Assembly: GCA_944376065.1 (NCBI GenBank)
Contig: CALWBL010000001.1
Location: 1-64,000 of the forward strand
Source of the DNA: an uncultured Butyricicoccus sp.
GTDB lineage: Bacteria; Bacillota; Clostridia; Oscillospirales; Butyricicoccaceae
Direction: 5' to 3'
DNA length: 64,000 nucleotides
Positions within the stretch are counted from its first letter, which is position 1; each line of letters begins with the position of its first letter. Of the stretch, positions 1-14,552 are shown piece after piece. The notes below the pieces were generated by a model. It made no database searches. It was not told the DNA's origin and worked only from the letters and a program-made list of their open reading frames with translations. Both the position numbers and the translations under genes were made by a program.

Positions 1-77
1 AATGGGCTTTCTCCTAACCAGATGGAATCTCTATTCTTTAGTTAATTTTACTTGTCCACTTTATTGACTATAGTCCA
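1..77 (+). mobile_element. 3' end of an IS3-like insertion sequence (transposase tail plus right terminal repeat)
   Basis: Seen: plus-strand frame 1 reads NGLSPNQMESLFFS and stops at 43-45. A GLSP-x-Q motif close to the stop is common at the C-terminus of IS3-family OrfB (rve integrase) proteins. It is followed by TGTCCACTTTATTGACTATA...TCCA (53-77), a terminal-repeat-like sequence with the CA-3' end typical of IS3 elements. The hsdR reading frame becomes recognisable immediately beyond 77, so 77 is the likely element boundary. The rest of the element lies left of the window. The family is inferred from these two short motifs only. Confidence 0.5.
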
Positions 78-2840
78 TCTACTTGTAATGTGGCTTTGAT
101 GTCCTCTCTGGTAGACCAATCTGTGTATTTTGCCTTGTCATCCACAATTTGTTTAATGCGTTTGGAGAGCTCAAGCATTTTATCATCGGGATACTCAAAT
201 TCAAACTTCTTGGCTACCGCCTTCAGTATATCATAGAAAGCTTTTTCTTCGTAGTCAATACCCATATCCTTAAAGGAGTTTTTCTCTTGTTTTAATGCCT
301 CCAACAACTGAGCAAGCTGTTCTGCTACATCATCAAGAACATCATTTGCAAGTGTTTCATCTCGTCTGCGGTTATTGTAATCATCTACAATTTGTTTTAG
401 ACGCTCTGAAAATTCTATGCCCATAATAATGTATGCATTCTTTTTCACTATAAGAAATTGAATCATTGGAACCGCAGAGATTAAACGCTTGTTTCATTCG
501 TTTTACAGCAGCCATAAAACGAAGTTCCAGCTCCTCACTTAATTGAACATACTCTACTGCATGTTTTAAACAGTCAAGTTGTTCTTTTGGTGTACCATGA
601 AAAAAGTTTTTGCTATTGAAATTGTGAAACATTTTCTCTAATACGTCCAGTTGGTCTTTCACAATGATAACAGCCTGTTCAACCCCTTCAAATTCATTAC
701 TTTCAAAATTGGTGTACTTTTGAAGGGCGATATTCATATTCTTCTTAATTCCAATATAATCTACAATCAAACCCTTATCTTTATTAGGATAGACACGGTT
801 TACACGGGAAATTGTTTGAATTAGTGTGTGCTGTTGAATCGGCTTATCAATATAAATTGTATCCAGTGCAGGCACATCAAACCCAGTAAGCCACATATCC
901 ACTACAATAGCAATTTTGAAATTAGACTTTATGTTTTTGAATTGGCGATCATATTCCTTGCGGTCATCCTTTGTACCAAGCATTTCATAAAGAGCTGGCT
1001 CATCATCTTTGTTTCTGGTCATGATGAGCTTTATTTTTTCAATAGGTTTTAACTCTTTTTTCTCCTTATCAGATAGCTGAGTACCATCTGGGCACACCTT
1101 TTTTACTGCCCATTCCGGTCGCATATCAATGATGATTTTATAAAGAGCATAGGCAATTTTTCTGTTAGAACATACAAACATCGCTTTACCCGCTACCGTT
1201 CCACCCTCTGCAACACGGGTTTCATAGTGGCAAATAAAATCTTCTGCAACCACCCTAAGTCTATCAGGGTCGCCAATAATGGCATCAATGTTGGCAACAG
1301 CTTTTTTGCTTTCCTCAATTTGATGATTATTTGCACCTTCCAGTGCACACCGGTCATAGTAGTCCTCAATTTCCTGTACTTTTGCCTGATCCAGTGTAAC
1401 TTTTGCAGCTCGTCCATCGTAAACCAGATTGACTGTGATTCCATCTTTAACAGATTCAGTCATGGTGTAGGAATCCACCACAACACCAAATACTTCAATT
1501 GTTCCATCTACCGGTGTTCCTGTGAAACCAACATAAGTAGCATTGGGCAGAGAATCGTGTAGATACTTTGCGAATCCATAAGAGCGTTCCACACCATCAG
1601 CAGTAACCTTTACTTTCTGATTGAGATTGATTTGACTGCGATGTGCTTCATCAGAAATACAAATAACATTTGAGCGGTCTGTCAACACCTCTAAATCCTC
1701 AGTAAACTTTTGAATGGTAGTCATATACACGCCGCCACTGGTTCTGCCTTGCAGCTCTTTACGAAGTGTATCACGAGAATCAATACTTACAACTGTTTCA
1801 TCCCCGATATACTTTTTAGAAGCAACAAACTGCTTGGAAAGCTGGTCATCTAAATCGGTGCGGTCTGTGATAATCAAAATCGTTGGACTGTGAAAATCAG
1901 CACTTTTCATTAACATACGGGTAAGAAACAGCATGGTATAGCTTTTTCCGCATCCAGTTGCTCCAAAATATGTTCCGCCTTTACCGTCACCCTCTGGTCT
2001 GCGGTGCTTCTTGATATTTTCAAATAGCTTTGTTGCTGCAAAAAACTGAGGATAGAGGCATACAATTTTGATATCTCTGTCTGAGCTATCAGGAAAATAT
2101 ATAAAGTCTTTAATAACCGCTAATAATCTATCTTTTCGGAAAAGACCACTGACCATTGTCACAAGCGAGCTAATGCCGTCCAGTTCCCTATCATCATCTT
2201 CAATTTTTCTCCACGCATAAAAGAAGTCATAAGAGGTAAAAAATGAGCCGTATTTATTATTAGCACCATCACTGATGACCAAGAAAGCGTTATATTTGAA
2301 CAGCTCAGGAATATCTCTGCGGTAACGCACAGTAAGCTGTTTGTAGGCATCCATAATGGTGGTATTTTCTCTGGTTGCACTCTTAAATTCCAAAACAACA
2401 ACAGGGATACCATTGACAAAAATAATACCATCTGGAATACGCAGCTGACCGCCAACACCCTCAATTTCAAACTGATTTACAATCTTGAAGCTGTTATTTT
2501 CCGGTTTCTCAAAATCAATGAGCTGTATATATAAATCCTTTTGAGTGCGGTCTTCTCGGTTGAAAATAAAACCGTCGCAGAGCAGTTTGCAAAATGCTTT
2601 ATTAGCTTCATAAATAGTGCCAGAAATAGATTTCAGCATAAGAAGAATGCTGTCTACTTCTGCGATAGTCAAACCATTAGCAGAATATCGACTGAGCAGG
2701 TACTGCCGTAAATCCTCTATCAGCAAAACTTCCGACCTCTCCCGATGAATTTGTTCCCCATTCAAATGAATGTAGCCTTCATCTTGAAATAACTCTATAA
2801 TTGCCATTTCCAGAGAATGTTCGTTAAAGTTTATCATCAT
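78..2840 (-). pseudogene. hsdR: Type I restriction enzyme R subunit (HsdR), broken
   Basis: HsdR is the ATP-dependent translocase and nuclease subunit of type I restriction enzymes. Seen: an N-terminal PD-(D/E)xK nuclease core (RIPDGIIF...VVVLEFKS, about residues 136-156), Walker A (GATGCGKS, about 297), DEAH box (ISDEAHRS, about 400), and a GFTGTP motif. The main frame ends near 381 with a nonsense tail, while the family C-terminal helical region resumes in another frame (ERLKQIVDDYNNR to about 78). About 80-100 residues usually found between these blocks are absent, so the junction at about 422-430 is a deletion plus frameshift. The 3' end is cut at 78 by an IS. The start is taken as ATG 2840, or 2837, behind AGGTGA; an overlapping GTG at 2846 is less likely. 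Restriction activity is probably lost. Confidence 0.85.
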
Positions 2841-2867
2841 ATTCACCTATTTTCACAATTAAATTCA

Positions 2868-3923
2868 TCACTTTAAATATGATTTCACAATTTCAACAAA
2901 TTCACCAATATCTGAAAAATAGTTAGGATATGCTTGTTTTAAATCTTTAAATGATGAAACTCTAACAAGAACAGTATCAACTTTAGATTCAGCTCTTGTG
3001 CTTTCAATTGAATTATAAACAATATTTGCATCCTCTATTTCACTTGATTTAAAATATTTAATCCTTAGCCGTCTGGTATCATAATTTAGGATTAAAATAT
3101 AGTAACCCATATGAGGATTTTTCTTAATTATCTTATTCTCGGTATCTATTGCTACACGAACACCACTCAAAAAATCAAGATAATTATTTTTAGCATTGAT
3201 ACTCTCTATTTCTGATATAATTTCATCTATATCATCAATTACATCAGGTGGAATGGGTTTTTTTTCTTGCTTTGCAAATAATGCTGACACCAAAACAAAA
3301 AATCGTTTTACATCTTCTGATCCTTGACCAGCTTTAATTGCTTGTTTTGTAAATAGTCCCATAGTTTCTACAGCTGTAGCCCATAAATGTTGCAAATGTG
3401 TCCTATATTGAATTTCTATAAGCATATTCCTGTTATATGTATCGGTAGTATCACTATGATATTCATACACTACATGAAGACTTCTATAACCAGATGGTTT
3501 TGGATTTTTAATATAATCATATTCTTTCTTTTTTAAATGCCTCTTTCTTGATTCGTCATATTTTGATTTGTATTCGTATACACTATAGATATTTGGAAGA
3601 ATAACACGACATCCTCCAAGATCCTGCATTGTCCATAAATTCATATTATTCTCTCTTGCTAATTTCTTCACAATAGAATCTAATCGTTTCAATCGTTCCG
3701 CAACAATTATATTGCTGTTCCACGAACACATACGTCGCAAATGTGTATAGATTATATGTAAAGGAAACGCATGTGCCGCTCTCCAATTGTCAACAACTGC
3801 AACAGCTTGCTTGTAATTATCTGTATCTGGATTTTCCTGCCTTATAATTTTCCCAGCGTTTACAATTTGGCTTCTTGAGTATTCAACTTTTTTCCATCGT
3901 GGTTGTTTTATTATACTATTCAT
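2868..3923 (-). CDS. RelA/SpoT-domain nucleotide pyrophosphokinase in the type I RM operon
   Basis: A 351-residue protein with a RelA/SpoT synthetase domain at about 70-190. All landmarks I can check are present: R77-x-K79 with S83 (ATP binding), D101 and R106 in MQDLGGCR (metal/catalysis), the G-loop GYRSLH 145-150 with its tyrosine, E170 in EIQYRT, and W181. There is no HD hydrolase domain and no TGS/ACT regulatory region, so it resembles a small alarmone synthetase with an extra C-terminal domain (about 240-351). ATG 3923 is chosen over the upstream in-frame ATG 4043 because AAAGGTGA precedes it and the longer form would run into hsdS. It lies 29 bp after hsdS and 28 bp before hsdR. Synthesis of (p)ppGpp or tRNA pyrophosphorylation (toxSAS type) are both possible; the defence role is inferred from context. 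Confidence 0.85.
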   Translation of the reverse strand: MNSIIKQPRWKKVEYSRSQIVNAGKIIRQENPDTDNYKQAVAVVDNWRAAHAFPLHIIYTHLRRMCSWNSNIIVAERLKRLDSIVKKLARENNMNLWTMQDLGGCRVILPNIYSVYEYKSKYDESRKRHLKKKEYDYIKNPKPSGYRSLHVVYEYHSDTTDTYNRNMLIEIQYRTHLQHLWATAVETMGLFTKQAIKAGQGSEDVKRFFVLVSALFAKQEKKPIPPDVIDDIDEIISEIESINAKNNYLDFLSGVRVAIDTENKIIKKNPHMGYYILILNYDTRRLRIKYFKSSEIEDANIVYNSIESTRAESKVDTVLVRVSSFKDLKQAYPNYFSDIGEFVEIVKSYLK

Positions 3924-3952: not shown

Positions 3953-5047
3953 TCAACTTGATAGCTGAGTTAAAAATATAGACTTCATGTCTTCCAGAAG
4001 TTGGATTTCTTTGACATTGCACTGAATATTTTTGTATGTGCACTTGGCTATCTCTCCAAACCTATTAAGAGACTGATCATCGGGGATAGGGATTTCAAAA
4101 GATTCAAGTTCTTGTTTGTTGATAGCTTCTCTTGTTGACCCAGATTGACCAATACCTAATAATTTTGATTTGTTATAAGCTGAACAAAGAGTAAACATAA
4201 TATAGTAACTCATGGTGATGCCCTTAATTGGACGTAAAATCATAACATGTTGATTTACTCTTGCAGGTAAAACATCATCTGGTACCATGCAACAGCGAGC
4301 CACAGATACACCTGTGATATTGAATAAAACATCATTCTGTTCTATTTTAACATTTGACAAAGCATCAGCTTGAGTTTGATTTATATGAGCTAAATCTGAA
4401 TATTCAAATCTGAAATCGAATACATTTGTACTTCTAACAAGTGAGATTCCTTCATCTATATAGGATGTTTTTCCACCTTTTGGTGTCGCACCACTACCGA
4501 TTTTTGTACAAATATTTTTCAGCGGAACATTTGGATATTGTTTATCAGAATCAATGAACATTTCTTTATAAACCGCCGATAGACTTGATATTAAATTCTC
4601 ATTTATCTTCTTTTTGAGTGCAATTCTGTCTGTAATCGTCTGATATGCCTTTACAATGCTACGCTGTTTTTCAATATCTGGAATAGGGAGTTCTACCTTG
4701 CACATTTCTTCCCAATCCATAACTTCACGAACACTTCCGTGAGATTTGAATCTTGCATATCGGTCAAAATCTGGTCTGCTAAACCATAGCATGAGATACT
4801 CTGGCATTAGCTGATTTTTGTCAATCACTTCAAAAACAGTATAAACATTGCTAACCAGTCCTTCCTCATAATCTTGTAAAAGAGCGATTCCAATTTTATC
4901 GCCACGGCGGGAGGTATCTGGAATGTATGTGAATGGAATAAATTGCTTTTGAACTGATACACCAAGCAAATTTTCTTCTTTACCCTCAACATTGCGAACA
5001 TCAACTTGTCGAATATATTGCCCTAACTGTTTATAATTCGATTTCAT
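3953..5047 (-). CDS. hsdS: Type I RM specificity subunit S (HsdS), probably with an internal deletion
   Basis: HsdS binds DNA through two target recognition domains (TRDs) joined by conserved helices and recruits HsdM and HsdR. Seen: 364 residues; TRD1 (1-155), a conserved helix with ELPIPDIEKQRSIV, TRD2 (about 180-330) beginning KNICTKIGSGATPKGG, and a closing ESFEIPIPD...FGEIAK helix. TRD1 reads FIP directly followed by FTYIPDTSRRGD; relatives usually carry about 25 more residues here (an N-x-I/V-G-T-D-x-S-x-Y segment). The short repeat ATTCCA on both sides fits a slippage-type in-frame deletion. The start overlaps hsdM by 17 bp and has AAGGAG upstream. Recognition function is uncertain. 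Confidence 0.85.
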   Translation of the reverse strand: MKSNYKQLGQYIRQVDVRNVEGKEENLLGVSVQKQFIPFTYIPDTSRRGDKIGIALLQDYEEGLVSNVYTVFEVIDKNQLMPEYLMLWFSRPDFDRYARFKSHGSVREVMDWEEMCKVELPIPDIEKQRSIVKAYQTITDRIALKKKINENLISSLSAVYKEMFIDSDKQYPNVPLKNICTKIGSGATPKGGKTSYIDEGISLVRSTNVFDFRFEYSDLAHINQTQADALSNVKIEQNDVLFNITGVSVARCCMVPDDVLPARVNQHVMILRPIKGITMSYYIMFTLCSAYNKSKLLGIGQSGSTREAINKQELESFEIPIPDDQSLNRFGEIAKCTYKNIQCNVKEIQLLEDMKSIFLTQLSS

Positions 5048-6596
5048 AACCTAACTCCTTAAAAACAGCCAATAAATCTGACTTTGACTTTTCTTCCTCC
5101 AAAAGTAGCTCTTTCAGCTCTGTCTGCAAGGTTTTCATTTTGGTGTCAAAGTCGATGTTTTCATCACGGTTGACAAACTCAATATAACGGCTTGGAACGA
5201 GTGTAAAGCCTTTTTCTGCGACCTCCTCAAAAGAAGCAGAATAGCAGAATTCCGGCACATTTTCATAAGGTTTGCCCTCTTGCTGCCAGTTGTGGTATAC
5301 GGCTGTAACTTTGGCTCTGTCCTCATCGGTCAGCTCAATATATTTTTTCTCGTAAGGGCTGCCCATCTGACGCAAATCCATGAAAAGAATTTCTTTTTCT
5401 CGGTTTCTATAATGTTTTACTTCACCGTTTTCTTCTACAACACGAGCCTTTTTATTTTTATTCAAAATCCAAAGGGTAACGCTGATATCGGTTGTATAAA
5501 AGAGATTTCGAGGTAAAATGATAATAGCTTCTACAAGGTTGTTTTCAATCAGCTGTTTGCGAATTTTCAGTTCTGTACCATCATCAGACAAAGCACCATT
5601 GGCAAGCAAAAAACCAGCCACACCATCTTGAGAAAGCTTTGAAACGATATTCAAAATCCAACCATAGTTTGCATTGCTTGTTGGTGGCACTTCGTAGCCA
5701 TTCCAACGAGGGTCGTCAGTCAGTTCATTGTCAGCTCTCCATTGTTTCTGATTAAATGGGGGATTTGCCATAATATAATCTGCTTTTAAGTCCTTATGCT
5801 GGTCATTTGTAAAGGTATTTGCAGCCATTTCACCCAAATTTGCAGATATTCCACGAATAGCAAGGTTCATTTTACATAGTTTATAAGTTGTATTGGTGTA
5901 TTCCTGCCCATAAATAGAAACTTTTTTCTTGTTACCGTGATGAGCCTCCACAAACTTCATGGACTGTACAAACATACCGCCAGAACCGCAACAAGGGTCA
6001 TATAAAATACCGTCATAAGGTTCAATAATTTCAGCAATCAGATTAACAATACACTTTGGTGTGTAGAATTCGCCCTTACCTTTACCTTCTGCCAGTGCGA
6101 ATTTGCTCAAAAAGTATTCATAAATTCTGCCAATGATATCGTTTTCTAAATCATCAGTACCAATTTTATCAATTTCATCAAGTAGTGATGCCAGTTTTGC
6201 AGTATCAATGTGAAGGCGAGAATAGTAGTTATCTGGTAAAGCTCCCTTCAAAGATGGGTTTGATTTTTCAATCGTATAGAGAGCAGTATCAATTTTCAGA
6301 GCAATATCATCTTGCTTGGCATTCTCCATTATATAACTCCAACGGCTAATATCTGGAAGAAAGAATACGTTGTCCTTGGTATAAAAAGCAACATTGTCCA
6401 AAAATTTCTCGCCGTATTTTTCTGCAATCAGCTTTCGCTGAGTTTCAAATTTATCACTTGCAAATTTCAGAAAGAACAAACTCAAAACAACATGCTTATA
6501 CTCTGCCGGTTCAACAGAACCACGGAGCTTGTCGGCACTTTTCCATAGTGCTTCTTCCATGCTGATTTCTTTTTTGGATTTCGCAGTTCTTGCCAT
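5031..6596 (-). CDS. hsdM: Type I RM DNA adenine methyltransferase subunit M (HsdM)
   Basis: HsdM methylates adenine N6 using S-adenosylmethionine, in a complex with HsdS. Seen: a 521-residue protein with an N-terminal helical HsdM_N region (1-150), the SAM-binding motif DPCCGSGGM at about 200, and the catalytic NPPF in MANPPFNQKQW at about 280. Length and motifs are normal for the family and no lesion is visible. ATG 6596 is preferred over ATG 6602 because AGGAG sits 7 nt before the former and only 1 nt before the latter. With hsdR broken, HsdM-HsdS could at most survive as a solitary methyltransferase, if the shortened HsdS still binds DNA. Confidence 0.95.
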   Translation of the reverse strand: MARTAKSKKEISMEEALWKSADKLRGSVEPAEYKHVVLSLFFLKFASDKFETQRKLIAEKYGEKFLDNVAFYTKDNVFFLPDISRWSYIMENAKQDDIALKIDTALYTIEKSNPSLKGALPDNYYSRLHIDTAKLASLLDEIDKIGTDDLENDIIGRIYEYFLSKFALAEGKGKGEFYTPKCIVNLIAEIIEPYDGILYDPCCGSGGMFVQSMKFVEAHHGNKKKVSIYGQEYTNTTYKLCKMNLAIRGISANLGEMAANTFTNDQHKDLKADYIMANPPFNQKQWRADNELTDDPRWNGYEVPPTSNANYGWILNIVSKLSQDGVAGFLLANGALSDDGTELKIRKQLIENNLVEAIIILPRNLFYTTDISVTLWILNKNKKARVVEENGEVKHYRNREKEILFMDLRQMGSPYEKKYIELTDEDRAKVTAVYHNWQQEGKPYENVPEFCYSASFEEVAEKGFTLVPSRYIEFVNRDENIDFDTKMKTLQTELKELLLEEEKSKSDLLAVFKELGYEIEL

Positions 6597-6613: not shown

Positions 6614-7516
6614 TTAGTTTTCGTTGTAGGCACGATCGAGCAGTGCCTTTGCTTTTTCGTAGTCTGCTCGATTACGAATAGTAACTTCTACATTTCCTGT
6701 TCCGTAATGTCCAATTTCGGTAGTATCCTGTGTAAAACCTTTTTCATAGTCAATCGTACTTGCATCCAGTTTCAGATACAATGTCAAATGGTTTTTCAAT
6801 ATCTCAATACATACGATGTTTTTTATCTTTTTAAATGCAACATAGTGTTTGAGCTGATTCTCAGTGATGTCATCGCCCAAACTGAGTATATAATTGCGTA
6901 TATCTTCGTACAATGTCAAAATTTCTGGTGAAGCATCATTTTTCTTTTCTATAAAGGATTTTTGTCCACCTTTTACCTTAACAATAGGTGTAAAATTGTT
7001 TTCATCATTCATATTAGCAGCAATATTCTCATTGATTTGTTCAAACATCAGCAAATCATCACCAAACTTTTTGTAGCGAATCAGCGTAATATTTCTGTTC
7101 ATCTGTTTGATGGCAGACTCATCATATTTTGTAAAATCACCAGCCACACATACAACACGGGGCATTGACCAGTCAATATCATCTGCGGCAGCCAGCCCCA
7201 GCTTTTCAATAACAATCACTTTGAAACTATCCTTATGATCGAGAAGCCAATTCAGATAAAATAGCCCCTGATTGATGACATTATCCTTTATGGAACGCTT
7301 GTATTCAAAGATAACAGGACAGTGGTTTTCATCAATACCAATACTGTCCATGCGACCGCCATCAGTTGTGCGATATTCGCTTGCAAGGAAAGTTACCCCG
7401 AAAAAGGTTTCCATATTCTGCTCAATAATGGTTTGTAACTCCTTTTCCAGCGTTACCGTACCACTTTGATACTCTTTTACATCACCTTTGATGTTGAATA
7501 GCTTAATATCAGCCAT
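6614..7516 (-). CDS. PD-(D/E)xK nuclease-like protein (DUF5655/NucS-like)
   Basis: A 300-residue protein. The N-terminal half carries a PD-(D/E)xK-like signature: a glutamate helix (KELQTIIEQNMETFF), MDSIGID, and then PVIFEYKRS (E-x-K), at about residues 25-77. The C-terminal half (about 190-300) resembles the DUF5655 domain in this family (YVAFKKIKNIVCIEILKN...LYLKLD). Such proteins often sit beside restriction or other defence genes and are sometimes misnamed transporters. It is 17 bp upstream of hsdM and overlaps the HTH gene by 8 bp, so it belongs to the same operon. A DNA-cleaving or DNA-binding accessory role is inference. Confidence 0.75.
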   Translation of the reverse strand: MADIKLFNIKGDVKEYQSGTVTLEKELQTIIEQNMETFFGVTFLASEYRTTDGGRMDSIGIDENHCPVIFEYKRSIKDNVINQGLFYLNWLLDHKDSFKVIVIEKLGLAAADDIDWSMPRVVCVAGDFTKYDESAIKQMNRNITLIRYKKFGDDLLMFEQINENIAANMNDENNFTPIVKVKGGQKSFIEKKNDASPEILTLYEDIRNYILSLGDDITENQLKHYVAFKKIKNIVCIEILKNHLTLYLKLDASTIDYEKGFTQDTTEIGHYGTGNVEVTIRNRADYEKAKALLDRAYNEN

Positions 7517-8493: not shown

Positions 8494-9150
8494 CTAATTA
8501 ATATTACCATACAAACTTATTACACGATTTAATATTGCTGCACATTGAGCACGTGTTAAACTATCATTTCCTCCATAATCTCCATTTCCATATCCTGTTA
8601 TAATGTTTATATCTACCATTAATTGAAGTGCAGCTTCTGGATATGCTCTCCAACCCTGCTCAAATTGACCATGTTTACTCTCATACTGACTTATTATATC
8701 TTCGTCAGATAATCCACTTGCTCTTAGTATAGTATAACATAATTCTTGTCTTGAAATAGGCGAATTAGGCAAAAACATTGCTCCTCCCTCATATCTATTC
8801 CAATGCACTGGAAAATATTCTCCACATTCCATTACAGCATTATAATACCATTCATTTCCATATATATCTATAAATTCATTAACATTTTTGTGTTTTACTC
8901 CACTATTATAAAAAATTTGTGCAACCTGAGCATTTGTTAAAACACCATTTGGATTAAATTTTTCACTACTTTCGCCATTCATTAGACCATAATTTACTAT
9001 AAATTGTACATCTTTATAGTACCAGTCACTAACATTCACATCAGTAAATTTACTTATTTTTTCACTATTTGAGTTTTCAAATGCATAAGCAGGTATTACA
9101 GAAAAAGTTAATGTACATGCAATAATTGCAGTTATTATACGTTTCATCAT
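8494..9150 (-). CDS. Secreted S-layer homology (SLH) domain protein
   Basis: A 218-residue protein with an N-terminal signal peptide (KR, then IITAIIACTLTFSVIPAYA with a cleavable AYA) and two to three SLH repeats: FTDVNVSDWYYKDVQFIVNYGLMNG with the T-N-A-Q-V-A-Q-I motif, a middle repeat (FIDIYGNEWYY...PISRQELCYTILRA) and a last one ending LTRAQCAAILNRVI. SLH domains bind pyruvylated cell-wall polymers. ATG 9150 is chosen because GGAGG lies 8 nt upstream; the codons before it come from the ribosome-site region. No catalytic domain is present. It sits 33 bp downstream of a second SLH gene and is probably co-transcribed with it. Confidence 0.85.
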   Translation of the reverse strand: MMKRIITAIIACTLTFSVIPAYAFENSNSEKISKFTDVNVSDWYYKDVQFIVNYGLMNGESSEKFNPNGVLTNAQVAQIFYNSGVKHKNVNEFIDIYGNEWYYNAVMECGEYFPVHWNRYEGGAMFLPNSPISRQELCYTILRASGLSDEDIISQYESKHGQFEQGWRAYPEAALQLMVDINIITGYGNGDYGGNDSLTRAQCAAILNRVISLYGNIN

Positions 9151-9183
9151 TTTATATTCCTCCATTAAATATTGTTAAATAAA

Positions 9184-10743
9184 TTATACCAATTCTATTT
9201 TTCTTATTCTTGAATTATATGGATAATATAAATAAAATACATCACTTCCAGCAGCTATTATACTGCACTCTTCACTTTGAATATTGGTATCTAATTGTGT
9301 GCTATCTAAAACTTTTATATTAGTTTCATCAATCAAACATTCAACTGTTTTATTTATTGGGTCAATTTCAATTATATTAAAATCAGGATATGATTTTGTG
9401 TAAAATTTACCATTATAACTTGATGATGCTGTTATATAAGTAGACCAGTTATAATTGTTATTTTCTAGTTTTATACTCTCCATTCCATTTATATAGTTGA
9501 AATAGACTACACTTTCACCTATACCATATATTTCACCATTACTATAACCAATGTGTAAATCATCTGTTGAAAGGTTATAATCAGCTTTACCTATATTTCT
9601 TACAGGTTCATTTTTTAAATCCCAATAAATTTCTCCATTATAATATAAAATATCACCTGAATCTGTGATTAAAGAGCTTTCTCTTCTAGCATTTTCTGGA
9701 GTTACAACAAAATGTTCATAATTAAAAATATCTGGCATATACTTTCCTAAAATTTGTCCAGTTTTTAAATCTATACACATAATAGCATTTTCACCTTTAT
9801 ATGGTATATAGCTATATAATAAAGCATATACTTTTTCATTTTTAGCATCTGTAAGTAAATTTGCTACCGACCAATTTTTAAATTCAAATTCCTCATAATA
9901 AGAAGAATTTGTTTGTTTTGAAATAGTGATTGGATAATTACCATCAAATAATATTTGACCATCTTTATATATCTCATTTTCTGTTGAGTAATATAAAGAA
10001 CCTTTATTATCAACCAACATACAATATACACCATCTTGCTTATATGCTGTTGTAATTTTATATGTTTGCTTTGGCAAAGTTATTTCTAAACGCATTGATT
10101 TATCAATCATTCTTACCAAAATTGTAGCAACTTCCGAGCGGGTTATATTTGAATATGGTTTAAATTCACCTGTTTCACCACTACCAGTTAATACTCCCGC
10201 ACGATAAAGCATATATATTCTATCTACAACATCTGAACCTAATTCTTCTTCTAATAAATCTGGTATATATCCATCTGGAATTTTATTTATTTCCTCATAT
10301 TCTAAATCAGGCAATGCTTTACTTAACCAATATGCAAAACTCCATCTAGTAGCTTTTGCATCTTTTATAACTCCATCTCCTTCATAATTTTCATCTATGT
10401 ATGCTTTTACATACTCGTAATAAGGAGCTGACCAGTCACTTGTCATTGCTGTATCAATTTGATTTCCATTATACTTAGCATGAATTCTAGCTAATAAAAC
10501 AGTTTTTTCTGCTTCTGTTAGTGTTTGATTTGGTGAAAATGTTGTTTCACTTGTACCATTTATAAGACCATATTCATAAGCATTTTTTACTGACTCATAA
10601 TACCATGAGCTAGACTGAATATCTTTAAATTGATTATTATATTGCATTTGTTTTTGAAATTTATAATATCCTGCATTTGCCATTACTAAGCTTAAAATAC
10701 ATAATAAAGTAGCGATTATAACTGTAAATATTCTTTTTTTCAT
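9184..10743 (-). CDS. SLH-domain surface protein with a propeller-like C-terminal region
   Basis: A 519-residue protein: an N-terminal membrane or signal segment (KKR, then IFTVIIATLLCILSLVMANAG), SLH repeats at about 38-225 (FKDIQSSSWYYESVKNAYEY...LTEAEKTVLLARI, and YSNITRSEVATILVRMID), and about 290 residues with recurring short strands (SLYYSTENEIYKDG, GDILYYNGEIYWDL, SNGEIYGIGESVVYF). The latter look like beta-propeller blades reading out values, as in DUF5050-like proteins. The family assignment of this part is uncertain. AAGGAGAAATGATGT precedes the start. Together with the downstream SLH protein it suggests a two-gene cell-surface operon. Confidence 0.8.
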   Translation of the reverse strand: MKKRIFTVIIATLLCILSLVMANAGYYKFQKQMQYNNQFKDIQSSSWYYESVKNAYEYGLINGTSETTFSPNQTLTEAEKTVLLARIHAKYNGNQIDTAMTSDWSAPYYEYVKAYIDENYEGDGVIKDAKATRWSFAYWLSKALPDLEYEEINKIPDGYIPDLLEEELGSDVVDRIYMLYRAGVLTGSGETGEFKPYSNITRSEVATILVRMIDKSMRLEITLPKQTYKITTAYKQDGVYCMLVDNKGSLYYSTENEIYKDGQILFDGNYPITISKQTNSSYYEEFEFKNWSVANLLTDAKNEKVYALLYSYIPYKGENAIMCIDLKTGQILGKYMPDIFNYEHFVVTPENARRESSLITDSGDILYYNGEIYWDLKNEPVRNIGKADYNLSTDDLHIGYSNGEIYGIGESVVYFNYINGMESIKLENNNYNWSTYITASSSYNGKFYTKSYPDFNIIEIDPINKTVECLIDETNIKVLDSTQLDTNIQSEECSIIAAGSDVFYLYYPYNSRIRKIELV

Positions 10744-12517: not shown

Positions 12518-13606
12518 ATGCAAGAAACTTTTGTTTGTAACAACTGTGGAGTAGAATTTCATATCGATGATGCTATTTATGTGGGTGATGACATACTATG
12601 CCCTGATTGTGCCGACAATTTAACAACTACCTGTGAGCATTGCCATGAGTATGTGTATATTGAGGACACAATAACCGATGGAACTGTAACTTTATGCAGA
12701 TATTGTTATTCAAATCACTATTATACCTGTGAAAATTGTGAAACCATAATTCATACAGACAACACTTACTATGCAAACGATGACCCCGACCGTCCTTTGT
12801 GTTATGACTGTTGGCAAAGACATAGAAATACTATTCATGAGTATAGCTATGTACCTGATGATTTAATTTTCCATGGTAAAGGCAATAGATATTTTGGCGT
12901 AGAACTTGAAATTGATGACGGCGGAACCGATAACGATAATGCTCAGGCATTGCTTGAAGTTGCAAACGACAGAGCAGAAAACCTGTATATTAAAACCGAT
13001 GGCAGTTTAAACGAAGGCTTAGAGCTTGTAACCCACCCTATGACACTTGAATATCATATAAACGATATGCCTTGGGCTGACCTTTTATATGAAGCTAAAA
13101 GTCTTGGCTATCTCAGTCATAGCTCAGAGACCTGTGGATTACATGTACATATTAACCGAACAGCTTTTGGCTCAACATATACAGCTCAAGAGGAATGCAT
13201 AGCCAGACTTGTATTCTTTGTAGAAAAATTCTGGCCTGAACTTCTAAGATTTAGTCGCAGAACAAAAAGCCAGCTTAATCGTTGGGCAGCTCGCTATGGC
13301 ATGAAGCTCTGTCCTAAAGAGCAAATCGACCATGCTAAAAATTCATGTGCTGGCAGATACACAGCTGTAAATCTGACAAACAGTGAAACCGTGGAACTTC
13401 GCCTGTTTAGAGGCACACTAAAACTTAATACTTTAATAGCTACATTACAGTTTGTAAATCATCTGTGTGAGGTAGCTATTTCTTTATCTGACCAAGAACT
13501 TCAGGACATGAGCTGGTTTGATTTCCTCGATATGATTTCTGAACAAGAGATTATTCAATATCTAAAAGAACGCCGTTTATATGTAAATGAACCAGTAGAA
13601 CAATAA
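12518..13606 (+). CDS. Amidoligase-family enzyme with N-terminal zinc fingers
   Basis: A 362-residue protein. Residues 4-110 carry three tandem pairs of CxxC modules (CNNC...CPDC; CEHC...CRYC; CENC...CYDC), a treble-clef/LIM-like zinc region. Residues about 125-340 match the Amidoligase_2 family, a glutamine-synthetase-like ligase fold: RYFGVELEID, IKTDGSL, ELVTHPMTLEYH, CGLHVHINR, and TVELRLFRGTL. Family knowledge: these enzymes form amide bonds on peptides or small metabolites using ATP. AAGGAGGAACTCAAAA precedes the start, and the class II amidotransferase follows 13 bp later, suggesting the pair works together with glutamine as the nitrogen donor. The substrate is unknown. Confidence 0.85.
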   Translation: MQETFVCNNCGVEFHIDDAIYVGDDILCPDCADNLTTTCEHCHEYVYIEDTITDGTVTLCRYCYSNHYYTCENCETIIHTDNTYYANDDPDRPLCYDCWQRHRNTIHEYSYVPDDLIFHGKGNRYFGVELEIDDGGTDNDNAQALLEVANDRAENLYIKTDGSLNEGLELVTHPMTLEYHINDMPWADLLYEAKSLGYLSHSSETCGLHVHINRTAFGSTYTAQEECIARLVFFVEKFWPELLRFSRRTKSQLNRWAARYGMKLCPKEQIDHAKNSCAGRYTAVNLTNSETVELRLFRGTLKLNTLIATLQFVNHLCEVAISLSDQELQDMSWFDFLDMISEQEIIQYLKERRLYVNEPVEQ

Positions 13607-13619
13607 CAGGAGGTATTTT

Positions 13620-14552
13620 ATGTGCAGTTTATTTGGTCTTATCGATTTTGATAATGCATTGACCGCAAAAAAGAAAAACAAAATTTTAAACACACTTGCA
13701 ACAGTATGCGAATGTCGTGGAACAGATGCAACTGGAATAGCTTATAACCTAGGAGGAAAGCTCAAAATTTATAAACGCCCTGTTCCAGCTCATAAACTTA
13801 ACATCTGTGTGCCTGATAGTGTAAAAACAATTATGGGGCATACCCGAATGACTACTCAGGGTGATGCAAAGCATAACCAGAATAATCACCCATTTTCTGG
13901 ATATGCTAACGGAAAATATTTTGCCTTTGCACATAACGGCATGATTTGGAATGACTTGGAGTTAAGACTAACCGAAAGGCTACCAGTTACAAACATTGAA
14001 ACCGACAGTTATATAGCTGTACAGCTTATAGAAAAAGAAAATGCTCTTGACTTTAGCAGCCTCAAAAGCATGGCTGAAAAGGTCAAGGGTTCTTTTGTGT
14101 TTACAGTGTTAGATAGTGATAATTCAATTTGGTTTGTTAAAGGCGACAACCCGCTGAGCATATTTTACTATGATGGTTTTCTAATTTATGCATCGACAAC
14201 CGAAATACTAAACAGAAGCATAAAGCATTTAAAACTTGGTAAGCCTAAGAAAATTTATACTCCATCTGAAGGCGATATTCTTCATATAAATTCTAGCGGG
14301 CAAATAGAAAGCAGCTTCTTTACCCCTGACTTTAGCGGTTTGTTCTACAACTATAATTTATACGATTTTGGTATGTGTTATAGCACAAATTCTTATGATG
14401 AGCTTATATCGGTTGCAAGCTCAATGGGCATAAGCCCAGATGAAATTATGGCACTTATGGACTATGGCTGTGAACGTGATGAAATTGAAGAACTGCTATA
14501 TGACCCCTCACTCTTACATGAAATTGCAGCTGAACTGCTTTATGCTTACTAA
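13620..14552 (+). CDS. Class II glutamine amidotransferase (Ntn hydrolase)
   Basis: A 310-residue protein beginning Met-Cys (MCSLFGLIDFDN); Cys2 would become the N-terminal nucleophile. Other glutaminase landmarks: CRGTDATGIAY, GHTRMTTQGDA (glutamine-binding Arg), NNHPF, FAHNGMIWN (oxyanion Asn-Gly), TDSYIAVQLI, and a closing strand region to about 225. The usual synthase domain (as in GlmS, PurF or AsnB) is missing; the last 80 residues are a short helical tail. It would release ammonia from glutamine for a partner enzyme, most simply the amidoligase encoded just upstream. ACAGGAGG precedes the start. Confidence 0.9.
   Translation: MCSLFGLIDFDNALTAKKKNKILNTLATVCECRGTDATGIAYNLGGKLKIYKRPVPAHKLNICVPDSVKTIMGHTRMTTQGDAKHNQNNHPFSGYANGKYFAFAHNGMIWNDLELRLTERLPVTNIETDSYIAVQLIEKENALDFSSLKSMAEKVKGSFVFTVLDSDNSIWFVKGDNPLSIFYYDGFLIYASTTEILNRSIKHLKLGKPKKIYTPSEGDILHINSSGQIESSFFTPDFSGLFYNYNLYDFGMCYSTNSYDELISVASSMGISPDEIMALMDYGCERDEIEELLYDPSLLHEIAAELLYAY

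What the first reader, a model, noticed from the sequence alone, without database searches (positions are those of the whole stretch)
2868..3923. Intact RelA/SpoT synthetase embedded between hsdS and hsdR
All catalytic landmarks of a pyrophosphokinase are kept while the adjacent hsdR has decayed. Small RelA/SpoT proteins in defence loci can be toxins (toxSAS, CapRel) that pyrophosphorylate tRNA or make alarmones when phage is sensed. Position inside a type I RM operon suggests a back-up effector linked to DNA surveillance. The C-terminal domain (240-351) is a candidate sensor or autoinhibitory part.
Basis: partly seen in the sequence, partly recalled or inferred. Interest (0 to 1): 0.65.

Follow-up and report, generated by a model that had tools for sequence, protein, structure and literature searches.

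The report
CapRel-type phage-defence toxin in restriction operon
The gene encodes a full-length relative of CapRel, a known bacterial self-inhibited toxin that phage proteins switch on, and it sits in a cargo slot inside a DNA-restriction operon whose cutting subunit is broken; it is a good new member of a known kind rather than a new system.

Summary
Window 3923-2868 (-) is an intact 351-aa RelA/SpoT synthetase between hsdS (5047-3953) and hsdR (2846-). The hsdR is decayed: it has a net 275-bp internal loss with a frameshift, and its 3' end is replaced by an IS3-type end at the contig edge. An 86%-identical hsdR elsewhere (L179) is intact.

The protein is a fused toxSAS of the CapRel family. 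It aligns full length to CapRel-SJ46 (E 2e-42) and hits PADLOC PDC-S33 (E 8e-117). Its AlphaFold model (pLDDT 92) has CapRel structures as its top PDB matches. The adenine-coordinating arginines, the G-loop tyrosine and the YXXY neutralisation motif are all kept. It is therefore most likely an autoinhibited tRNA pyrophosphokinase whose own C-terminal domain senses a phage protein.

The "back-up effector of DNA surveillance" reading is not supported. Nearly all relatives lie in prophages, phage-plasmids or alone; 2 of about 100 other loci are RM-embedded. The protein has no extra RM-contact domain. Related hsd loci carry unrelated defence genes in the same gap (AbiJ-like, TIR, KAP NTPase, HEPN). 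The gap is thus a general cargo slot, known from PrrC and DarTG2. I class it as a new member of a known kind.

The parts
2868..3923 (-). Fused CapRel-type toxSAS, 351 aa: toxSYNTH about residues 71-190, anchor-1 about 226-272, pseudo-ZFD about 273-322, YXXY (Y332-P-N-Y335) in anchor-2
   Evidence: phmmer to 7ztb/9erv, PDC-S33, residue map, AF2 model and Foldseek
3953..5047 (-). hsdS, 364 aa, two Methylase_S stretches
   Evidence: Pfam PF01420
5031..6602 (-). hsdM, 523 aa, N6_Mtase with HsdM_N
   Evidence: Pfam
381..2846 (-). hsdR main fragment, 821 aa, HSDR_N + SWI2/SNF2 + T1R_D3; C-terminal part lost by deletion and frameshift
68..466 (-). out-of-frame C-terminal remnant of hsdR, cut at its 3' end by an IS3-type terminus (about 1-74)
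6614..7516 (-). PADLOC candidate PDC-S18 (DUF5655) gene upstream of hsdM
   Evidence: a homologue lies upstream of hsdM in L181
7509..7721 (-). 70-aa ORF resembling a small helix-turn-helix protein, first gene of the same-strand run
   Evidence: the ORF listing; family assignment by eye only

Best explanation
The gene is a fused CapRel-type toxin-antitoxin, carried as cargo in the hsdS-hsdR gap of a type I RM operon. Inferred mechanism, by homology to CapRel-SJ46: at rest the C-terminal pseudo-zinc-finger docks on the synthetase so that the YXXY 3-10 helix (Y332/Y335) sits between R77 and R106 and blocks ATP binding. A phage protein, possibly a capsid protein, binds the variable anchor-1/pseudo-ZFD surface and holds the protein open. 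The freed enzyme pyrophosphorylates tRNA, stops translation and aborts the infection. It needs no intact HsdR. Shown here: homology over the full length, domain order, motif conservation, model fold, operon position and hsdR lesions. Inferred: enzymatic target, toxicity, trigger and present-day expression.
For: Full-length sequence match to CapRel-SJ46 structures 7ztb/9erv, E 2e-42 and 3e-42, versus E 2e-14 or worse for housekeeping SAS. PDC-S33 E 8e-117, a model that also captures SJ46 CapRel at E 7e-87. AF2 pLDDT 92, pTM 0.90, with strand-strand-helix-strand at 273-322 and a short helix at 333-336. Foldseek top three hits are CapRel, E 6.5e-23 to 1.1e-21, with a gap to 7.7e-8 for the next. 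R79, R116, Y155, A351, Y352 and Y355 of SJ46 are all conserved. Sensor regions diverge (21-32% mean identity) while the synthetase (50%) and YXXY segment (57%) are kept. CapRel biology from PMC9712102 and PMC11578894.
Against: SJ46 A341, where A341K made the protein constitutively toxic (PMC9712102), is R321 here; only 3 of 42 relatives are charged at this site. If R acts like K the protein would be leaky. The Foldseek superposition has rmsd about 10 A, so the domain arrangement differs from the open crystal form; I did not verify that the model is the closed form. No activity data exist. The nearest relative is only about 50% identical, so the trigger is unknown.
Confidence: 0.82

Rival explanations
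1. PrrC-like coupling: the RM complex (HsdM/HsdS/HsdR) holds or gates CapRel, and inhibition of restriction by a phage anti-restriction protein fires it as a back-up.
For: Same gene order as hsdM-hsdS-prrC-hsdR (PMC3014915). The arrangement recurs in L003 and L098; in L098 capRel overlaps hsdS by 17 bp and hsdR by 4 bp. Those two form a clade with 100 support.
Against: The protein carries its own YXXY autoinhibition and no extra domain. Most relatives live without any hsd gene. The window's CapRel groups with prophage copies rather than with L003/L098 (support 82). hsdR is broken here while capRel stays open.
Confidence: 0.1
2. Housekeeping small alarmone synthetase making (p)ppGpp that happens to lie in the operon.
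For: A RelA_SpoT domain with complete catalytic residues.
Against: Absent from all 86 other genomes of the family and from the order, class and phylum samples, unlike ordinary SAS. Housekeeping SAS align over the synthetase only. It has the CapRel C-terminal domain and YXXY. The genome has its own long Rel.
Confidence: 0.04
3. A decaying passenger: the whole operon is under relaxed selection and CapRel is no longer made or active.
For: hsdR carries two lesions, and R321 departs from the family.
Against: The 351-codon frame is intact at an AT-rich locus and all invariant residues are kept. A ribosome-binding-like AAAGGTGAT lies just upstream of the ATG.
Confidence: 0.12

Closest known systems
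CapRel-SJ46 (Salmonella phage SJ46; PDB 7ZTB, 9ERV; PMC9712102, PMC11578894)
   Same: Single ORF, toxSYNTH plus pseudo-ZFD plus anchors, R79/R116/Y155/YXXY all conserved, full-length homology
   Different: About 31% identity; chromosomal contig with an hsd operon instead of a phage-plasmid; A341 is R321; sensor region strongly diverged, so the trigger is probably different
PADLOC candidate PDC-S33 (predicted by guilt-by-embedding; PDC meaning from PMC10855318)
   Same: Model covers residues 10-350 at E 8e-117, and also matches SJ46 CapRel
   Different: A catalogue entry without experiments of its own; preprint 10.1101/2024.01.29.577857 not held, so its exact claim could not be read
DarTG2 in the EPEC type I RM operon (PMC12255303)
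   Same: Toxin-antitoxin placed between hsdS and hsdR, small regulator gene first in the operon
   Different: DNA ADP-ribosyltransferase pair, unrelated to RelA/SpoT; intact hsdR
PrrC in the EcoprrI locus (PMC3014915, PMC2610378)
   Same: Order hsdM-hsdS-effector-hsdR; effector acts on tRNA
   Different: Unrelated protein (NTPase/anticodon nuclease); kept silent by the RM enzyme, whereas CapRel carries its own antitoxin domain

Membership tests
CapRel (fused toxSAS) | N-terminal RelA/SpoT synthetase, no hydrolase domain | tested here: met
   Pfam: only RelA_SpoT, 76-183; synthetase residues invariant
CapRel (fused toxSAS) | C-terminal antitoxin (pseudo-ZFD and anchors) in the same ORF | tested here: met
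   Full-length phmmer 4-346, secondary structure, Foldseek top hits 7ztb/9erv over 355-358 columns
CapRel (fused toxSAS) | YXXY neutralisation motif | tested here: met
   Y332-P-N-Y335 aligned to Y352/Y355; Y332 invariant in 42 rows
CapRel (fused toxSAS) | Conserved docking-interface residues (A77, R116, V338, L339, A341, A351) | tested here: inconclusive
   Five of six conserved; A341 is R321
CapRel (fused toxSAS) | Pyrophosphorylates tRNA, toxic when released, triggered by a phage protein | not testable with these tools
   Needs bench work
PADLOC PDC-S33 | Match over the whole profile | tested here: met
   E 8e-117, profile 3-342 of 349
PrrC/EcoprrI-type RM-silenced effector | Gene between hsdS and hsdR | tested here: met
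   order as in PMC3014915
PrrC/EcoprrI-type RM-silenced effector | Homology to PrrC (NTPase + anticodon nuclease) | tested here: not met
   Only RelA_SpoT found
PrrC/EcoprrI-type RM-silenced effector | Silenced by an intact RM complex | not testable with these tools
   Silencing needs bench work; HsdR of this locus is truncated
Housekeeping SAS (RelQ/RelP) | Full-length match to RelQ/RelP | tested here: not met
   Matches cover only about residues 72-235 of 351 at E 2e-14 or worse; NCBIfam YjbM 56 bits against a cut-off of 320
Two-gene toxSAS (e.g. FaRel2) | Separate antitoxin gene beside the toxin | tested here: not met
   Neighbours are hsdS and hsdR with gaps of 29 and 21 bp

The most novel reading that the evidence does not exclude
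RM-embedded CapRels are doubly controlled: besides their own sensor they are gated by the HsdM/HsdS (or HsdR) complex, so that an anti-restriction protein or loss of restriction also fires tRNA pyrophosphorylation. L003 and L098, with intact hsdR and closely packed or overlapping genes, would be the best cases.
Probability: 0.1. Interest if true: 0.7.

Novelty: new member of a known kind. Interest (0 to 1): 0.38.

Why it matters
It links an experimentally understood phage sensor (CapRel) to the hsdS-hsdR cargo slot and gives three embedded examples, two of them with intact hsdR. That makes it directly testable whether embedding in an RM operon is only shared transcription and transfer, or true functional coupling. 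It also shows related hsd operons exchanging unrelated effectors at one position.

Tried and rejected
1) Looking for CapRel in the same family, order, class and phylum: only the window's own copy, so no close strains for selection tests. 3) Using a locus as the centre of the genome search: not accepted. 4) Promoter scan: as many hits as in shuffles, so no claim about a private capRel promoter. 5) Searching papers for PDC-S33: none; papers with CapRel and hsdR: none describes embedding of CapRel by title, abstract or the passages read. 6) IS end in the own genome: a single copy, so it was identified from copies in same-genus genomes next to an IS3-type transposase read by eye. 7) Housekeeping SAS and two-gene toxSAS readings rejected on domain coverage and gene context.

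Full report
OBSERVATION. The same-strand run is: a 70-aa ORF that looks like a small HTH protein (7721-7509), a PDC-S18/DUF5655 gene (7516-6614), hsdM (6602-5031), hsdS (5047-3953), the RelA/SpoT gene (3923-2868), then hsdR (2846-). Gaps are 29 bp or less, or short overlaps. The RelA/SpoT gene has GC 30.7% and GC3 19.3%, against 38% and 34-35% for hsdM and hsdR, which suggests a different history from its host operon.

DECAY OF hsdR. The main frame matches profile positions 1-793 of a 1029-position HsdR model, and positions 880-991 lie in a second frame. A virus-collection contig, L179, carries the same RM family with an intact 1049-aa HsdR, 86% identical over residues 4-808. Aligned to it, the window lacks a net 275 bp (11 bp left between window 439 and 427 versus 286 bp), which also shifts the frame. 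The last ~31 codons are missing after GTAGA. What follows contains GTCAATAAAGTGGACAAG, a motif found several times in same-genus genomes, often at contig ends, and in several cases beside an rve-type IS3 transposase frame. So an IS most likely ends the gene at the contig edge. The own genome has a second HsdR on contig 16, open from the contig edge (959 aa).

WHAT THE PROTEIN IS. Sequence search against solved structures gives CapRel-SJ46 first (7ztb E 1.9e-42, 9erv E 3e-42; residues 4-346), with ordinary SAS at 2e-14 or worse and limited to the synthetase. PADLOC PDC-S33 matches at 8e-117; the same model matches CapRel-SJ46 itself at 7e-87 and other relatives. The AlphaFold2 model on 42 relatives has pLDDT 92 and pTM 0.90. 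Its C-terminal part shows strand-strand-helix-strand (273-280, 285-292, 293-308, 315-322) and a short helix at 333-336. This is the topology described for the CapRel pseudo-zinc-finger and YXXY helix (PMC9712102). Foldseek ranks 7ztb_B, 9erv_A and 7ztb_A first (6.5e-23 to 1.1e-21); the next family is at 7.7e-8. The global rmsd of about 10 A fits a different relative placement of two domains; the crystals are open forms, and whether the model is the closed form was not checked.

KEY RESIDUES. SJ46 A77, R79, R116, Y155, V338, L339, A351, Y352 and Y355 correspond to window A75, R77, R106, Y146, V318, L319, A331, Y332 and Y335, all identical. Over 42 relatives R77, R106, Y146, E170 and Y332 are invariant. 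The one departure is SJ46 A341, here R321. In SJ46 A341K caused constitutive toxicity (PMC9712102). Most relatives have S (33) or A (6); window R, one K and one E are exceptions. Mean identity to the window is 50% in the synthetase, 57% in the YXXY segment, 32% in the pseudo-ZFD and 21% in anchor-1. That is the pattern expected if the C-terminal surface is the diversifying phage sensor (PMC11578894).

DISTRIBUTION AND CONTEXT. No other full-length copy was found in 86 further family members or in samples of 393 order, 390 class and 397 phylum genomes. Relatives come from scattered bacteria, plasmids and virus contigs. Among about 100 loci with flanks read, hsd genes were found next to only two others. 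L003 is an Oscillospiraceae MAG: hsdM (cut), hsdS, capRel, hsdR of 1049 aa. L098 is hsdM, hsdS, capRel, hsdR of 1079 aa, with capRel overlapping its neighbours by 17 and 4 bp and a TmtA defence gene downstream. This survey used queries from two hsd families and limited flanks, so divergent hsd genes could be missed. The closest relatives (about 50% identity, L086-L097) lie on virus contigs, and those examined have phage genes such as anti-repressor, terminase and portal nearby. On the tree L003 and L098 pair with support 100, while the window copy joins the prophage group (82) inside a 12-row clade (95); SJ46 is just outside (93). Two entries into RM operons are the simplest count, but one origin is not excluded.

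THE SLOT. The hsdS-hsdR gap of related operons holds other genes. L179 has a HEPN pEK499_p136-like protein (just under the Pfam cut-off). G398 has PDC-S32 (AbiJ_NTD4-like). G400 has a PDC-S35 TIR protein, a DUF4062 protein and PDC-S32. G316 has PDC-S32 plus a KAP NTPase (PDC-S49). G922 has a 470-aa unknown. On plasmids with the same HsdR family, three of five readable loci have genes in the gap and two have none. Published cases at the same position are prrC (order hsdM-hsdS-prrC-hsdR; PMC3014915) and DarTG2 in EPEC (PMC12255303). PADLOC's PDC families were predicted by guilt-by-embedding (PMC10855318). The preprint behind them (10.1101/2024.01.29.577857, cited in PMC12255303) is not held here.

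MECHANISM. The best-supported account is an autoinhibited fused toxin-antitoxin that is freed when a phage protein binds its C-terminal part, then pyrophosphorylates tRNA and stops translation. Homology, fold, motif and position are shown; the enzymatic target, toxicity, trigger and expression are inferred from CapRel-SJ46. Because inhibition is built into the protein, it can in principle work without HsdR and survive the loss of restriction. RM gating in the manner of PrrC remains possible but has no positive evidence beyond position.

VERDICT. It is a new member of a known kind in a known type of location, with the extra value of two further embedded examples that have intact hsdR.

Noticed in passing
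L179:2776-6981: Same RM family with a partial hsdS, a second inverted hsdS-like frame, a tyrosine recombinase (4317-5300) and a full hsdS: looks like an invertible, phase-variable specificity locus, with a HEPN-like gene in the hsdS-hsdR gap.
   Followed up: partly
window 1-74: Contig begins inside an IS3-family end that cuts hsdR; the same end is multicopy and at contig edges in same-genus genomes.
   Followed up: partly
window 6614-7516: PDC-S18 (DUF5655) gene leads the hsd operon; a homologue lies upstream of hsdM in L181 of the same genus, so it may be a stable partner of this RM type.
   Followed up: partly
window 12518-14552: Amidoligase_2 gene followed directly by a class II glutamine amidotransferase gene, possibly a peptide-tagging or modification pair.
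   Followed up: no
window 8494-10743: Two adjacent S-layer-homology proteins with signal-like N-termini, next to the defence operon in an AT-rich stretch (28.6% GC).
   Followed up: no
L183:6887-8299: 470-aa protein in the hsdS-hsdR gap with no Pfam or PADLOC match: a candidate unknown defence effector.
   Followed up: partly
L196:5084-5932 and L198:5054-5917: Proteins of 282 and 287 aa without Pfam match in the hsdS-hsdR gap of Psychrobacter plasmid RM loci.
   Followed up: no
L080:135-7666: CapRel of Aliarcobacter faecis plasmid next to a SIR2, DUF87 ATPase, AAA ATPase and SbcCD-type nuclease cluster, probably a defence island.
   Followed up: no
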